32,275 nucleotides of DNA from Alphaproteobacteria bacterium (lineage in GTDB: Bacteria > Pseudomonadota > Alphaproteobacteria > UBA2136 > JAPPOO01), in NCBI GenBank assembly GCA_028817875.1, contig JAPPOO010000048.1, positions 1 through 32,275 of the forward strand. The letters are read 5' to 3'. Shown here in pieces: positions 13,206 to 31,779 of the stretch. The position numbers were made by a program, and so were the translations under genes. How positions within the stretch are numbered: the first letter of the stretch is position 1; the number at the start of each line of letters is the position of its first letter. The notes under the pieces are model-generated. The model was not told the origin of the DNA. It was given only the letters and a program-made list of their open reading frames with translations, and did not search any database.

Positions 13206-13466
13206 ATGGCAAATACTAAAAAGTCTTACGTTATCGGAGAACAATATGAAGCCTTTATTGCACAACAAATTGCAGAAGGGCGTTTTAACAACGCTAGTGA
13301 AGTTGTACGCACTGCTTTACGCATGCTTATTGACTACGAAACAAAAATGGCATCACTACGCCAACATATTCAACAAGCAGATGATGATGTAGCAGCAGGA
13401 AACTATACTACCTACTCGAAGTTTGGTGACTTGTATGCTGATATCATGACAGATACTGACGAATAA
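13206..13466 (+). CDS. parD: ParD-family antitoxin
   Basis: This 86-residue protein has the ParD/CopG ribbon-helix-helix ([34 protein letters not shown]). An acidic, flexible C-terminal half that would wrap the toxin follows. ParD binds DNA to repress its own operon and neutralises ParE. The toxin gene starts one base after its stop. It is AT-richer than the flanking head genes and lies between the MuF and gpG genes, where Mu has no such insertion, so it looks like acquired cargo. Confidence 0.92.
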
Positions 13467-13467
13467 T

Positions 13468-13761
13468 ATGCGCAAACAACTTATTGTTACCCACACCGCT
13501 AAGTCAGATTTACGTCATATCTACAACCATATTGCTAAGGACAATCCGCAACGCGCTAAAACTTTTGTAGAAGAACTTGCTGCGAAAATAGAATGGATTG
13601 CAGATACTGATTTTACAGGCTCTCCTAGAGATTACGTTGCTGAGGATTTGCGGATGCTTCTTTACCACCAAAGATGTATTTACTACCGATCTACCCCTGA
13701 CCAAATCATTATTTTGAGAGTGTTGCACTCATCTCAAGATGTGGCTCAAGTCAAATTTTAA
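13468..13761 (+). CDS. parE: ParE-family toxin (RelE/ParE superfamily)
   Basis: This 97-residue protein has the ParE fold pattern: N-terminal strand QLIVTHTAKSDLRHIYNHIA, helix PQRAKTFVEELAAKIEWIA and C-terminal strands (DLRMLLYHQRCIYYR, QIIILRVLHSSQD). ParE toxins poison DNA gyrase. RelE-like enzymes of the same fold cut mRNA, but ParD pairing favours ParE. With parD it forms a type II addiction module. The gpG gene follows after 6 bases, so the pair may share late transcription as well as its own promoter. Confidence 0.92.
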   Translation: MRKQLIVTHTAKSDLRHIYNHIAKDNPQRAKTFVEELAAKIEWIADTDFTGSPRDYVAEDLRMLLYHQRCIYYRSTPDQIIILRVLHSSQDVAQVKF

Positions 13762-14293: not shown

Positions 14294-14340
14294 ATATATT
14301 TATGCATTTTAGCTATCACGTATCATCCCTACCCCCAAAA

Positions 14341-14377
14341 CGCATTTAAACGCGAATTTAAAGACAGTTTAAATGCG
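14341..14377 (+). terminator. Eleven-base-pair inverted repeat, possible terminator of the head operon
   Basis: CGCATTTAAAC (14341-14351) and GTTTAAATGCG (14367-14377) are perfect inverted copies around a 15-base loop. They are followed, after GTCTGG, by TTTTTAGG. The T-run is displaced by six bases, so terminator activity is uncertain; an operator role is also possible. Confidence 0.45.
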
Positions 14378-14415
14378 GTCTGGTTTTTAGGAACTCACCC
14401 TTTTATGTATAAATC

Positions 14416-14446: not shown

Positions 14447-14451
14447 CCCTG

Positions 14452-14545
14452 TTCGGTTGCGGTGAGTAATTTGAACAGTTTGGGTACTTTCTCAAATTTT
14501 AACGTGAAAACCCCGCTTGTGTCTCACTACAAAGCGGGGTTTTTT
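14452..14545 (+). ncRNA. Predicted antisense antitoxin RNA, module A
   Basis: This plus-strand RNA of about 94 bases would begin at the conserved 28-mer (14450-14477), whose ends TGTTC and GAACA can pair. It would end at the terminator 14511-14545. Its middle contains GGTACTTTCT (14483-14492) and ATTTTAACGT (14496-14505). Both arms are repeated at 14630-14639 and 14645-14654, where the opposite strand encodes the leader of peptide A just upstream of its start codon. The RNA can therefore form two ten-base-pair helices with the toxin message at its ribosome-binding region. Transcription is inferred, not shown. Confidence 0.6.
14511..14545 (+). terminator. Terminator shared by antitoxin RNA A and peptide A message
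   Basis: CCCCGCTT (14511-14518) pairs with AAGCGGGG (14532-14539) and is followed by six T's on the plus strand. On the minus strand the same hairpin is followed by TTTT, so it can end both convergent transcripts. It lies just past the stop codon of peptide A. Confidence 0.8.
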
Positions 14546-14550
14546 GTTCT

Positions 14551-14625
14551 TTATCTACTTAAGATAATCTGAAGGCGAACCTTCAGCCATCCCCAGCAGA
14601 GAACTAGTTTTAGTCTTGTCCTCAT
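14551..14625 (-). CDS. Predicted 24-residue basic hydrophobic toxin-like peptide, module A
   Basis: The ORF encodes MRTRLKLVLCWGWLKVRLQ plus five more residues ending in SR. It is basic and hydrophobic, the composition of membrane-active type I toxins, and the LKL...W..KV...R pattern is shared with peptide B. The start region is held in a predicted stem: GTCTTGT (14613-14619, within codons 3-5) with ACAAGAC (14660-14666). The ribosome site is an A-rich AAAGAAAG, not a strong one. The upstream ATG at 14688 is in the same frame and would give a 45-residue product. Resemblance to Helicobacter AapA peptides is compositional only. Confidence 0.55.
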   Translation of the reverse strand: MRTRLKLVLCWGWLKVRLQIILSR

Positions 14626-14688
14626 TCTAGGTACTTTCTTTTTTATTTTAACGTACAGAACAAGACATGGCCCGAAGGCCGCCGCCAT
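14626..14688 (-). other. Leader reading frame fused in frame to peptide A
   Basis: A second start (ATG at 14688 with AAAGGAG upstream) reads MAAAFGPCLVLYVKIKKK and continues without a stop into peptide A. In module B the corresponding leader begins with the same seven residues but stops after 12. It may be a translated regulatory leader, as mok is for hok, or the start of a longer toxin. Confidence 0.4.
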
Positions 14689-14715
14689 AATGCACACTCC
14701 TTTTACAAACCGCAA
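14669..14715 (-). promoter_or_regulatory. Conserved 47-base leader of the peptide A message
   Basis: This block matches 14971-15017 at 46 of 47 positions although the sequence on one side is unrelated. Read on the minus strand it contains TTGCGG, the ribosome site AAAGGAG, an ATG and GGCC-UUCG-GGCC, a very stable tetraloop hairpin (14669-14680). Its strong conservation against diverged flanks implies a function as RNA: message stability, ribosome standby or antitoxin recognition. Confidence 0.6.
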
Positions 14716-14725
14716 TGAAGAATAG

Positions 14726-14754
14726 TTGCAAACTATGCCTAATAGGACTATATT
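14726..14754 (+). promoter_or_regulatory. Promoter of antitoxin RNA B
   Basis: TTGCAA (14726-14731), 17 bases, TATATT (14749-14754) is a good vegetative promoter. Initiation about seven bases later falls at 14761, exactly at the start of the conserved 28-mer. This is the strongest promoter-like sequence in the gap. Confidence 0.6.
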
Positions 14755-14760
14755 CCAGAT

Positions 14761-14850
14761 GTTCGGTTGCGGTGAGTAATTTGAACACGAAGAAGATTTC
14801 TTCATATTTACATTAGATATCCCCACTGCTCCAACAGTGGGGATTTTTTT
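14761..14850 (+). ncRNA. Predicted antisense antitoxin RNA, module B
   Basis: This RNA of about 90 bases would run from the predicted start at 14761, through the 28-mer (14760-14787), to the T-run at 14850. It carries GATTTCTTCA (14795-14804) and TATTTACATTA (14805-14815). Both recur at 14932-14941 (one T/C change, a G-U pair in RNA) and 14944-14954, with two extra bases between them. On the opposite strand that second copy includes the GGAG ribosome site of peptide B, so this RNA would mask it. The pairing sequence is unrelated to that of module A, implying separate specificity. Confidence 0.65.
14821..14850 (+). terminator. Terminator of antitoxin RNA B
   Basis: CCCCACTG (14821-14828) and CAGTGGGG (14835-14842) form an eight-base-pair stem followed by seven T's (14844-14850). 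The peptide B stop codon lies within that T-run on the other strand. The minus strand lacks a T-run after the hairpin, so leftward termination here is less certain than in module A. Confidence 0.85.
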
Positions 14851-14926
14851 ACCGCCTTGTCAAAGATAGATAAAAGAGGACTTTTACCCGTCTCCATAAG
14901 ACAGTGATCTTTAGGTTCGCTCTCAT
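14849..14926 (-). CDS. Predicted 25-residue basic hydrophobic toxin-like peptide, module B
   Basis: The ORF encodes MRANLKITVLWRRVKVLFYL plus five residues ending in RR. It aligns with peptide A in length, start (MR..LK), tryptophan and KV positions and basic end, despite unrelated DNA around the ribosome site. A GGAG ribosome site (plus-strand CTCC at 14937-14940) lies ten bases before the ATG and can fold locally as GAG-AAAU-CUC. A longer stem, GGTTCGCTCT (14914-14923) with AGAGCGAATCC (14958-14968), encloses the start. Membrane toxicity is inferred. Confidence 0.55.
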   Translation of the reverse strand: MRANLKITVLWRRVKVLFYLSLTRR

Positions 14927-14951
14927 TTTGAGATTTCTCCATTTATTTACA

Positions 14952-14990
14952 TTATGTAGAGCGAATCCTTGGCCCGAAGGCCGCTGCCAT
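14952..14990 (-). other. 12-codon leader ORF of module B
   Basis: The start at 14990, behind AAAGGAG, reads MAAAFGPRIRST and stops 25 bases before the peptide B start, near its ribosome site. The first seven residues equal those of the module A leader. Translation of it could open the stem over the toxin start, as leader peptides do in hok-like systems. This is inferred from arrangement only. Confidence 0.4.
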
Positions 14991-15017
14991 AATGCACACT
15001 CCTTTTACAAACCGCAA
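14971..15017 (-). promoter_or_regulatory. Conserved 47-base leader of the peptide B message
   Basis: This is the second copy of the block at 14669-14715, differing at one base. The GGCC-UUCG-GGCC hairpin is at 14971-14982. No convincing promoter is seen upstream on the minus strand; CATAAA at about 15035-15030 is the best -10 candidate. Confidence 0.55.
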
Positions 15018-15080
15018 GGAGCGTCTTGCATTTATGTCTTTGATATGCTTCGCTGAAATAGGTTTTAGATATGTGTTTCT

Positions 15081-15116
15081 CCCCTGAACTTGTTCAGGGG
15101 GTTTTTGTTTTCTGAC
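15081..15116 (+). terminator. Terminator-like palindrome before gene I (copy 2)
   Basis: The perfect 20-base palindrome at 15081-15100 is identical to 6769-6788 and is followed by GTTTTTGTTTT. Like copy 1 it precedes a late operon: CATGAT (15122-15127) starts 22 bases after the palindrome, as TAATCT does at 6810-6815, and CTCTACA follows at similar distance in both. It may serve both as a terminator for upstream transcription and as an activator site of a Mu PI-like promoter. Confidence 0.7.
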
Positions 15117-22744: not shown

Positions 22745-23293
22745 TTATAACCTTCTAATAGCCCCAGCGTATACCCAAACAATTTCTTTGTTACCAAATA
22801 AAGGTCTTATAAACTCTACTCTCATCCAACCATCTAAAGACATAAATTTATTGGTTTTATCTGGGTTAGCAACTGTGAGTGCTTTTCCTAAACGACTAAA
22901 TCTAATGCCAAAACAATCGCCGTTGGTGGCTTGCTCTATTCTCTTCCAAACTCTACTTGTAAAAGGTTCGCTACTGTCTTCTCTAGCAACTTTATTGTAC
23001 GTTGCTGAAGCTATATCCATATTATCTTTATTTCTACATAAAGGATGCTCTGGATCTACTAAAACCAAGCTCCCTTCCATCCAAAGTTTATCAAAGGAAC
23101 CATTTAATTCTGATTTTTCTAAGTATTCTGGAAAGCATGTATCCCTCCAATCAGGGCATAAATGCCTGACTCTAGTTTCTTGGCTCTCTTTATTTGTATA
23201 CAAAAATACAGCTAGGGTGAAACCTACTAAAACACCAATAGCCAAAGTTACCCAAGAGCCTCGTGGTTGTGTGCGCTTTTTATCTGTACTCAA
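22745..23293 (-). CDS. Opposite-strand membrane-anchored protein, probable moron
   Basis: This 182-residue protein has a basic start (STDKKRTQPRG), one transmembrane helix (WVTLAIGVLVGFTLAVFLYT, about residues 14-33) and then a soluble part. That part contains several cysteines (HLCPDWRDTCFPEYL, PLCRNKD, GDCFGIRF) that could form disulphides in the periplasm. It is the only leftward gene inside the late operon, between tape measure and gpN. The start is TTG at 23293 with AGGGA eight bases upstream. I recognise no family. Opposite orientation, AT-rich DNA and membrane anchoring suggest lysogenic conversion or superinfection exclusion, unproven. Confidence 0.7.
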   Translation of the reverse strand: MSTDKKRTQPRGSWVTLAIGVLVGFTLAVFLYTNKESQETRVRHLCPDWRDTCFPEYLEKSELNGSFDKLWMEGSLVLVDPEHPLCRNKDNMDIASATYNKVAREDSSEPFTSRVWKRIEQATNGDCFGIRFSRLGKALTVANPDKTNKFMSLDGWMRVEFIRPLFGNKEIVWVYAGAIRRL

Positions 23294-30855: not shown

Positions 30856-30942
30856 GAGCTACTGAATTTACGGCCTTACAAGCCTTACACAGCGTGAACG
30901 GTGCCAACGTTAGTGGTGCTTAATAAATGCTGGAGAAAGAAT

Positions 30943-31779
30943 GTGACACAAAATGACCTTTTTGAGGGGATAGAGCTACTTAGCCGCGTAGAACCTTTAC
31001 AGGGAGCGGCTCCCTACTTGGGCGGTAAAAGAAACCTTGCCCAACGGTTGGTAACTCTTATTCAGGCCACGCCCCATAAACTATACGCTGAACCCTTTGT
31101 GGGTATGGGTGGTATCTTTTTTAAGCGTACTGCCCGCCCCAAAGTAGAAGTCATAAACGACTATAGCCGTGATGTTGCAAATTTCTTTCGTATTCTGCAG
31201 CGTCACCTAAAACCATTCCTAGAGGAAATGGAATGGATGGTTTACTCCCGCTCTGAATTTGAGCGTTTGAAAAGTGTTGATCCATCCGGCCTGACTGACC
31301 TTGAACGCGCGGCCCGCTTTTACTTTCTCCAGCGTAGCAGCTTTGGTGGGTGTGTTGGCAACCGTAGCTTTGGCGTAGACCGAGACGGCGGCGGACGCTT
31401 CAACATCTATAGCTTTAAAGAGTCTTTAAACGACCTTCATAAGCGTCTTTCAAAGGTGATTATTGAAAACCTTTCCTATAGCGATTTTATTACCAAGTAT
31501 AACTGCCCCGGTACCCTTTTCTACCTTGATCCACCGTATTGGGGGAACGAGAATGACTACGGCAAAAACCTGTTTAGCCGCACTGACTTTGAACAATTGG
31601 CGGAACAGCTACAAAGCGTTGAAGGGCATTTTATCCTATCGCTTAACGATTGTGAGGGTGTGCGAGAAACCTTTAAAATGTTTGATATGACCAGCGTAGA
31701 GACGGTTTACACCGTATCCGCCCAAGGCAGCCAAACCGTTAAAGAGGTTATTATTACAGGTGGTAAAAACTTAGTTTGA
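30943..31779 (+). CDS. DNA adenine N6-methyltransferase, D12 class (Dam-like)
   Basis: This 278-residue enzyme transfers a methyl group from S-adenosylmethionine to adenine N6. It contains the D12-class opening PYLGGKRNLAQRLVTLI (about 24-40), cofactor motif AEPFVGMGG (49-57) and catalytic DPPY (196-199). I chose GTG at 30943, with GGAG at 30932-30935; GTG 30901 lacks a ribosome site. It occupies the position of Mu's com-mom modification genes, so it probably protects phage DNA from restriction. The target sequence (GATC or other) cannot be told. Confidence 0.9.
   Translation: MTQNDLFEGIELLSRVEPLQGAAPYLGGKRNLAQRLVTLIQATPHKLYAEPFVGMGGIFFKRTARPKVEVINDYSRDVANFFRILQRHLKPFLEEMEWMVYSRSEFERLKSVDPSGLTDLERAARFYFLQRSSFGGCVGNRSFGVDRDGGGRFNIYSFKESLNDLHKRLSKVIIENLSYSDFITKYNCPGTLFYLDPPYWGNENDYGKNLFSRTDFEQLAEQLQSVEGHFILSLNDCEGVRETFKMFDMTSVETVYTVSAQGSQTVKEVIITGGKNLV

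What the first reader, a model, noticed from the sequence alone, without database searches (positions are those of the whole stretch)
14450..15017. Two tandem, diverged copies of a convergent small-RNA/peptide module, likely a type I toxin-antitoxin system in a Mu-like phage
Seen: two units about 260 bp long, 310 bp apart. Both have an identical 28-mer at one end and a 47-mer (46 of 47 matching) at the other. Between these the DNA is diverged, yet the order of parts is the same: plus-strand promoter, 28-mer, short antisense-like segment, terminator, minus-strand 24-25 codon ORF, message stem, 47-mer leader. Known: the Fst/RNAII par locus uses convergent transcripts with direct repeats and a shared terminator; AapA, Ldr and Hok are small membrane toxins. 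Inference: each unit is a type I addiction module carried as prophage cargo between gpG and gene I. I know of no such system described in transposable phages.
Basis: partly seen in the sequence, partly recalled or inferred. Interest (0 to 1): 0.93.

Follow-up and report, generated by a model that had tools for sequence, protein, structure and literature searches.

The report
Multicopy RNA-controlled toxin-antitoxin cassettes
Two tiny genetic cassettes in a Mu-like phage each appear to make a short cationic peptide that is probably toxic, plus a small RNA fitted to switch off only that cassette's peptide; three more cassettes of the same family lie elsewhere in the same bacterial genome, each with its own lock and key.

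Summary
In detail: two ~260-bp units, 310 bp apart, with an identical 28-mer and a 46/47 47-mer. The same genome holds five intact units, three on other contigs, and one relic. Each has a compact three-hairpin plus-strand RNA (fold z -4.7 to -6.2, 5 of 5) and a converging 24-25 codon ORF. The RNA's middle segment is complementary to the bases just upstream of its own toxin start: -21.1 to -28.5 kcal/mol for five cognate pairs, mean -12.0 for 20 non-cognate pairs; the cognate assignment is best of 120. A stem burying the toxin start changes on both sides at 6 of 10 pairs. Best reading: type I toxin-antitoxin modules with an Fst/par-like layout plus a hok/mok-like leader ORF. The toxin matches no family. 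No relative appeared in 384 other class or 397 other phylum genomes sampled (overlapping sets). It is not only phage cargo. Toxicity, transcription and the toxin promoter are unshown; type B units lack a clear minus-strand terminator; one type A ORF comparison shows no coding constraint.

The parts
14450..14545 (+). Unit A1 antitoxin RNA (predicted, ~96 nt): 5' hairpin (28-mer 14450-14477), recognition hairpin/segment 14478-14510, terminator hairpin plus T-run 14511-14545
   Evidence: fold z -5.11; anatomy; the simple terminator scan does not list this hairpin
14478..14510 (+). A1 recognition segment, complementary to A1 message from -30 to -1 of the toxin ATG (25 pairs)
   Evidence: -27.8 kcal/mol; 0 of 1000 shuffles as low; positions
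14551..14625 (-). A1 toxin ORF, 24 aa, MRTRLKLVLCWGWLKVRLQIILSR
14613..14622 (-). A1 3' arm of the start-codon stem (pairs with 14657-14666)
   Evidence: pair counts, helix 3; letters
14657..14666 (-). A1 5' arm of the start-codon stem, inside the leader ORF
14551..14688 (-). A1 leader ORF (MAAAFGP...), here in frame with the toxin ORF (45 codons in all); the toxin's own ATG is at 14625
14669..14715 (-). A1 47-mer: message leader with Shine-Dalgarno-like AAAGGAG, leader ATG at 14688 and GGCC-UUCG-GGCC hairpin
14716..14759 (.). 44-bp inter-unit spacer, 43 of 44 identical to the spacer between B2 and A2 on contig C76, although the order of types there is reversed
14726..14754 (+). Promoter-like site for B1 antitoxin RNA, TTGCAA-17-TATATT
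   Evidence: 9 of 12 consensus positions; 5 sites found in the region against 1.5 in shuffles; same site before A2 on C76
14760..14850 (+). Unit B1 antitoxin RNA (predicted, ~91 nt): 28-mer hairpin 14760-14787, recognition 14788-14820, terminator 14821-14850
   Evidence: fold z -5.09; terminator listed by scan
14788..14820 (+). B1 recognition segment, complementary to B1 message from -28 to -5 of the toxin ATG (22 pairs)
   Evidence: -22.5 kcal/mol; 0 of 1000 shuffles as low; positions
14849..14926 (-). B1 toxin ORF, 25 aa, MRANLKITVLWRRVKVLFYLSLTRR
14914..14923 (-). B1 3' arm of the start-codon stem (pairs with 14958-14967)
14952..14990 (-). B1 leader ORF MAAAFGPRIRST; its stop codon ends 6 nt after the 5' arm (14958-14967) of the start-codon stem
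14971..15017 (-). B1 47-mer: message leader with Shine-Dalgarno-like AAAGGAG and GGCC hairpin

Best explanation
Each unit is a type I toxin-antitoxin module. The minus strand makes a message with a short leader ORF (MA[AMV]AFGP...) followed by a 24-25 aa cationic, partly hydrophobic peptide, the presumed membrane-acting toxin. The toxin start codon is buried in a stem whose 5' arm lies inside the leader ORF, so toxin translation probably needs a ribosome passing through the leader (translational coupling, inferred). The converging plus-strand RNA (~91-96 nt: 5' hairpin, recognition hairpin and tail, terminator hairpin) is a trans-acting antitoxin: its recognition segment pairs with the ~30 bases just upstream of its own toxin start codon and blocks translation. 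Shown: the anatomy, compensatory changes in the start stem, strongly cognate-preferring complementarity in 5 of 5 copies, and faster divergence of the recognition/target pair than of toxin, leader and terminator. Inferred: transcription, toxicity, a membrane target, coupling, and selection for orthogonality among co-resident modules.
For: Five intact copies in one genome. Cognate duplex energies -27.8, -22.5, -28.5, -22.9, -21.1; 20 non-cognate mean -12.0, lowest -17.4; identity best of 120 assignments; shuffles as low 0, 0, 0, 0 and 2 of 1000 (A1, B1, A2, B2, B3); 22 to 26 pairs each. Start-codon stem 98% paired with 6 of 10 pairs changed on both sides; whole structure 97% paired against 37-59% when slid, covariation 0.450 against 0.266 shuffled. 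Antitoxin folds z -4.74 to -6.17 in 5 of 5. ORF open in 5 of 5; type B nonsynonymous/synonymous ratios 0.27, 0.50, 0.32. The leader ORF reads through the whole 5' arm in 5 of 5. A1 against A2: terminator 100%, leader 96%, toxin 87%, but initiation region 65% against 61% for shuffled. The relic on C81 lost the antitoxin body and the toxin start together.
Against: No expression or toxicity data. No minus-strand promoter-like site at the expected place, and the minus-strand upstream flanks are not conserved among copies apart from A1 and B2, which share the spacer. The three type B units lack a U-tract after the hairpin on the minus strand. A1-A2 ORF changes show no constraint (ratio 1.24 on 10 differences, permutation share 0.59), and the two other frames of that stretch look more constrained than the ORF frame; of the type B pairs one is not significant (0.205) and two are marginal (0.04). 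One of five covariation measures, further pair types, is not above shuffles (13 against 13.9), and I chose the structure by looking at these sequences. Message 5' folds are modest in 3 of 5 (z -0.77, -1.48, -1.29); the leader-SD hairpin is absent from the B2 and B3 minimum-energy folds and in another register in A1. Recognition segments within a type are still 62-76% identical against 56-59% shuffled, so they are diverged, not random. The peptides carry Arg/Lys inside the hydrophobic stretch. No homologue outside this genome, so all comparison is among paralogues. The relic is one case.
Confidence: 0.8

Rival explanations
1. Antisense-controlled small regulatory peptide that is not toxic: the same RNA switch, but the peptide acts as a regulator of a membrane protein or of the phage cycle.
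For: Toxicity is untested. The peptides carry 4 to 7 net positive charges, with Arg/Lys in the middle of the hydrophobic stretch, unlike a simple membrane span. ORF constraint is moderate at best.
Against: Tandem and multicopy cassettes, presence in a mobile element, mutually discriminating antitoxins, and loss of antitoxin and toxin start together in the relic (one case) fit addiction better.
Confidence: 0.12
2. A variant of the best explanation, not exclusive of it: the message reads through the weak minus-strand terminator and its 3' end (complement of the 28-mer, ACCGCAA) folds back on its 5' end (TTGCGGT), giving an inert full-length message as in hok or aapA, activated by 3' processing.
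For: The bases after the hairpin on the minus strand are U-poor in all three type B units. Minimum-energy folds of whole units pair TTGCGGT with ACCGCAA at the two ends in 5 of 5. Long-distance 5'-3' interaction is described for hok and aapA (PMC6733600, passages).
Against: The two type A units have U-tracts after the hairpin on the minus strand. The end pairing is 7 bp plus a few more and was not tested against shuffles. The 3' end of the message is unknown.
Confidence: 0.25
3. Non-coding mobile repeat (MITE-like) with structured RNAs, the ORF being incidental; conserved ends and diverged middles are marks of transposition.
For: The ends carry a short imperfect inverted repeat (TTGCGGT/ACCGCAA; seen in the folds). 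The genome is rich in a dispersed repeat (52 places). The A1-A2 ORF shows no coding constraint.
Against: A neutral repeat would not keep complementarity between two separate segments in every copy while both change, nor compensatory changes in the start stem. Similarity among copies extends past the ends into upstream stretches and the spacer, so the ends are not element boundaries.
Confidence: 0.04

Closest known systems
par of plasmid pAD1 (Fst toxin, RNA I / RNA II)
   Same: Converging toxin message and short antitoxin RNA; central hairpin complementary in both RNAs; direct repeats that make the antitoxin pair at the toxin translation start (PMC7472228, passages).
   Different: Toxin unrelated by sequence as far as tested (no Pfam or NCBIfam match); a leader ORF precedes the toxin; minus-strand terminator weak in type B units; Gram-negative host (inferred).
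hok/mok-Sok
   Same: An upstream ORF is probably needed for toxin translation; loci in plasmids, prophages and chromosomes (PMC4147584; PMC8621323; passages).
   Different: Sok pairs over mok; here the antisense covers the bases before the toxin start itself. No Hok match in Pfam or NCBIfam.
zorO-orzO / zorP-orzP
   Same: Tandem duplicated type I loci whose antitoxins discriminate their own targets by a variable region (PMC3919570, abstract and passages).
   Different: [quoted passage not shown] here most of a ~30-nt segment differs.
aapA/IsoA of Helicobacter
   Same: 30-aa peptide with essential basic C-terminal residues, multicopy chromosomal family, SD sequestration (PMC6733600; PMC8309996; passages).
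   Different: The five-peptide profile matches no solved structure; no AapA sequence was compared directly; no leader ORF is mentioned in the passages seen.
ibs/Sib
   Same: Five copies in one genome with target recognition domains (PMC4147584, passages).
   Different: Sib overlaps the entire toxin ORF as a cis antisense; here pairing is between separate segments.

Membership tests
Type I toxin-antitoxin (general) | Small ORF message plus an RNA complementary to it | tested here: met
   complementarity in 5 of 5 units; that both strands are transcribed is not shown
Type I toxin-antitoxin (general) | Peptide is toxic and the RNA relieves toxicity | not testable with these tools
   needs expression; relic on C81 is indirect support only
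Type I toxin-antitoxin (general) | Toxin translation start sequestered in RNA structure | tested here: met
   start-codon stem 98% paired, 6 of 10 pairs with change on both sides; message fold z from -0.77 to -3.49
Fst/par | Convergent promoters | tested here: inconclusive
   plus-strand site TTGCAA-17-TATATT for B1 and A2; none listed at the expected place for the other antitoxins or on the minus strand
Fst/par | Direct repeats giving antitoxin pairing at the toxin initiation site | tested here: met
   5 of 5; paired bases -30 to -1, -28 to -5, -30 to +1, -26 to -3, and -42 to -4 with a 12-nt loop
Fst/par | Shared bidirectional intrinsic terminator | tested here: inconclusive
   plus-strand tails T-rich in 5 of 5; minus-strand tails T-rich only in A1 and A2; the simple scan lists the plus-strand hairpin for B1 and in part B2, not for A1, A2, B3
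Fst/par | Fst/Ldr toxin sequence | tested here: not met
   0 of 5 match any Pfam or NCBIfam model at E up to 10 (filters drop most matches above about 0.1)
hok/sok | Hok-type toxin sequence | tested here: not met
   same scans; Rfam sok only at 22.5 bits against a gathering score of 59 on L002, E 0.1
hok/sok | Upstream ORF coupled to the toxin | tested here: inconclusive
   leader ORF with SD-like sequence in 5 of 5 reads through the 5' arm of the start stem; coupling itself untested
aapA/IsoA | AapA-type toxin | tested here: inconclusive
   no PDB sequence match with the five-peptide profile; no AapA sequence was compared directly

The most novel reading that the evidence does not exclude
A new family of type I toxin-antitoxin modules, in an alphaproteobacterium and its Mu-like phage, that combines Fst-like converging RNAs with a mok-like coupled leader, and whose ~30-nt recognition cassette turns over until every co-resident copy, phage or chromosomal, is orthogonal. 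A chromosomal antitoxin that matched a phage toxin would cure the phage's addiction, so selection on both sides would keep changing lock and key, helped by recombination at the conserved 28-mer and 47-mer ends (B1 looks chimeric: its leader is closer to A1 and A2, its toxin to B2 and B3).
Probability: 0.4. Interest if true: 0.75.

Novelty: new variant of a known kind. Interest (0 to 1): 0.62.

Why it matters
Five paralogous RNA-controlled modules in one 1.6-Mb genome give a natural test of how type I antitoxins stay specific: the scaffold (5' hairpin, terminator, leader, toxin) is kept while the recognition segment and its target change together. My library searches listed no type I system in a Mu-like or transposable phage and none described for Alphaproteobacteria (listings, limited terms, open-access papers only); a review passage seen speaks of Proteobacteria and Firmicutes. 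If toxic, the modules would also show a phage and its host carrying the same kind of addiction cassette with non-interchangeable antidotes.

Tried and rejected
Mu-like phage relatives carrying the module: blastn of the region found nothing in phages or plasmids; three exact patterns found nothing in IMG/VR; a fourth, looser pattern gave 4 contigs that score at most 13.4 bits with the model and look like chance. The genome-contig scan with a 19-mer gave 2 hits; the bases after them show no other part of the unit and the model finds nothing there at E up to 10. Relatives of the protease gene in IMG/VR: 9 pattern matches, none confirmed.

Relatives by covariance model: among 18 order genomes, hits outside the own genome lie only at E 0.096 to 0.79 (7 places in 4 genomes); in the own genome, besides five units and the relic, three more places at E 0.098 to 0.98, one of them the opposite strand of B2. 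Those loci were rescored, where of the other-genome loci only L022 and L027 were printed as alignments; neither showed the module. Class 1 of 385 and phylum 1 of 398, both counts including the own genome, with stricter filters and overlapping genome sets. The peptide profile in 385 class genomes hit 22 other genomes at E 0.0013 to 0.1; these partial matches, some inside long open frames, were not followed one by one. Three other hits at E about 0.004-0.005 are 22-40 nt and were not followed. A 28-mer-core search (up to 2 mismatches) of the 18 order genomes hit the own genome only.

Rfam: no match at gathering in the window; permissive matches on L001, L002 and L004 are below gathering apart from 16S rRNA. 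Idea dropped: that the other units sit beside 16S genes as a rule; the shared flank is a repeat with 52 listed places in the genome. Structure prediction was not used, because the peptides are under 30 aa. The end-to-end pairing of full-length messages was seen in folds but not tested against shuffles.

Full report
Observation. The repeats are real and at the stated places: an identical 28-mer (14450-14477, 14760-14787) and a 47-mer agreeing at 46 of 47 (14669-14715, 14971-15017). A 33-base pattern close to the 47-mer is found twice against a mean of 0.00 in shuffles.

Setting. The window is a whole contig (G000:C17) of a 1.58-Mb genome in 95 contigs. It carries a Mu transposase-like protein, and terminase, portal, head protease and tail sheath. 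All 102 phage records matched by the terminase are under 60% identical; the best of the 12 listed is 52.5%. Contig C76 of the same genome carries a 16S gene whose 12 listed best matches among plasmid records (562 matched in all), at 83-84% identity, are Phyllobacterium, Roseibium, Sinorhizobium, Rhizobium and Ensifer; that these are Alphaproteobacteria is recalled, and the class of the host is my inference.

Five units and a relic. Searching the own genome gives three further intact units: A2 and B2 in tandem on C76 and B3 on C67. C67 also holds a long helicase-like ORF and a class I lysyl-tRNA synthetase-like ORF (the names are my recognition, not searched). The covariance model finds the same five at 177-196 bits and a sixth place on C81 at 30.5 bits. 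Aligned with B3, the C81 copy keeps the outer part of the antitoxin upstream stretch, the terminator and the 3' half of the toxin ORF (profile positions 13-24), but lacks the 28-mer, the recognition segment, the toxin start and a recognisable leader. A copy that lost its antitoxin also lost the ability to start the toxin; this is one case.

Antitoxin strand. The plus-strand RNA of each unit folds into a 5' hairpin (the 28-mer), a recognition hairpin whose stem sequence differs in all five, and a terminator hairpin; z-scores are -5.11 (A1), -5.09 (B1), -4.74 (A2), -6.17 (B2) and -5.46 (B3), with none of 200 shuffles as stable. Promoter-like TTGCAA-17-TATATT precedes B1 and A2. The outer units A1, B2 and B3 share a different upstream stretch (CTTGATTTA...) that the scan does not score. 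The simple terminator scan lists the central hairpin for B1 and in part for B2 only; plus-strand tails are T-rich in 5 of 5.

Message strand. After a conserved leader with a Shine-Dalgarno-like sequence and ATG comes a leader ORF (MAAAFGP..., MAMAFGP..., MAVAFGP...). In all five it reads through the 5' arm of the stem that buries the toxin start; its stop codon ends 4 to 25 nt before the toxin ATG in four units, and in A1 it runs in frame into the toxin ORF. The toxin peptides are MRTRLKLVLCWGWLKVRLQIILSR (A1), MRIRLNLAVCLGWLKVCLQIISGR (A2), MRANLKITVLWRRVKVLFYLSLTRR (B1), MRAKLRATVLWGRIKVIFYLSLTRR (B2) and MRAKLVFAVLWRRIRVIFYVSLTRR (B3), net charge +4 to +7, no acidic residue. The stems: 97% of 100 cells paired, 8 of 20 pairs with changes on both sides (4.3 in shuffles), covariation 0.450 against 0.266; sliding the partner by 1 to 3 columns drops pairing to 37-59%. 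One measure, further pair types, is not raised (13 against 13.9). In the start-codon stem alone 6 of 10 pairs have changes on both sides. The alignment was made by MAFFT without structure, but I chose the structure by looking at these sequences. Message 5' regions fold with z -0.77, -2.61, -3.49, -1.48 and -1.29 (A1, B1, A2, B2, B3), so global stability is not the argument, the covariation is.

Lock and key. Duplex energies between each antitoxin's middle segment and each message 5' region: diagonal -27.8, -22.5, -28.5, -22.9, -21.1; off-diagonal mean -12.0, sd 1.9, lowest -17.4. Shuffled segments average -10.8 to -13.7, so most non-cognate pairs look like shuffled sequence. The identity assignment is best of 120. 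The paired message bases run from -30 to -1 (A1), -28 to -5 (B1), -30 to +1 (A2), -26 to -3 (B2) and -42 to -4 (B3, the last four pairs beyond a 12-nt loop), in two blocks with a short gap in most units, as with DRa and DRb of par (PMC7472228, passages). Within type A, terminators are 100%, leaders 96% and toxins 87% identical, but the initiation region is 65% against 61% for shuffled; among type B units toxins are 81-83%, initiation regions 68-77% against 64-65%. The antitoxin segments keep some similarity within a type: 76% (A) and 62-72% (B) against 56-59%. So the recognition pair is the fastest-changing part, but not random.

Selection on the ORF. Type B pairs: nonsynonymous to synonymous ratio 0.27, 0.50 and 0.32, with permutation shares 0.04, 0.21 and 0.04. 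A1-A2: 1.24 on ten differences (share 0.59), and the two other frames look more constrained than the ORF frame there. This is moderate evidence for coding in type B and none in type A, complicated by RNA stems that overlap the ORF.

Recombination. The 44-bp spacer between A1 and B1 equals that between B2 and A2 at 43 of 44 positions although the order of types is reversed, and B1's leader is closer to A units (88-89%) than to B2 and B3 (77-82%), while its toxin is closer to B2 and B3 (81-83% against 59-62%). Bodies seem to be exchanged between conserved ends.

Mechanism. I favour repression of translation by antisense pairing at the toxin start region, with basal silence from the start stem and activation by ribosomes in the leader. 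The layout is that of par/Fst; the leader recalls mok (PMC4147584, passages); discrimination between tandem copies has a precedent in zorO/orzO (PMC3919570, abstract and passages). The type B units lack a minus-strand U-tract, so their messages may run on, and the pairing of TTGCGGT with ACCGCAA at the unit's ends could then act like the hok and aapA long-distance interaction (PMC6733600, passages). The toxin promoter is not identified.

Family and novelty. The five peptides match nothing in Pfam, NCBIfam or PHROGs at E up to 10 and no solved structure. No convincing relative was found outside the genome: searches (4 of 61, the own genome and three chance-level hits; 1 of 385 class genomes; 1 of 398 phylum genomes), the one being the own genome. 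Library searches for type I systems with Mu-like or transposable phages gave 3 and 1 papers, none on the topic by title and abstract start; searches with Alphaproteobacteria or alphaproteobacterial genera listed none describing one (listings only). The library lacks most subscription papers. It is therefore a new variant of a known kind: type I by anatomy, not a member of Fst or hok by toxin sequence.

Noticed in passing
window 13206-13761: A ParD-like antitoxin and ParE-like toxin pair (Pfam E 1.7e-17 and 5.4e-15) lies one gene upstream of the units, so the phage carries a type II module as well.
   Followed up: no
G000, e.g. C76:1350-1530, C67:18761-18868, C35, C40, C70: A dispersed intergenic repeat of about 100-350 bp with 52 listed places in the genome (40 of 100 candidates scored); it follows the 16S gene on C76 and lies at the ends of several contigs.
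   Followed up: partly
L004:927-980 (contig C67): A stretch upstream of a small HTH gene scores 29.5 bits with Rfam c4-a1b1 (gathering 46.7, E 2.6e-4); two other places (L002:2360-2439, L004:1030-1118) score 28.6-29.5 with sRNA-Xcc1 (gathering 53).
   Followed up: no
window 30901-31779: A D12-class adenine methyltransferase near the right end of the phage (Pfam E 4.5e-26; PADLOC type II methyltransferase); no restriction gene was looked for.
   Followed up: no
window 14335-14383 and 15080-15101: A long inverted repeat after the Neck1 gene and a terminator-like site before the protease gene bracket the two units, so they sit at what looks like an operon boundary.
   Followed up: no
window 22745-23293, minus strand: A 182-codon minus-strand ORF inside the plus-strand tail region, with a hydrophobic stretch near its N-terminus; no PADLOC match.
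   Followed up: no
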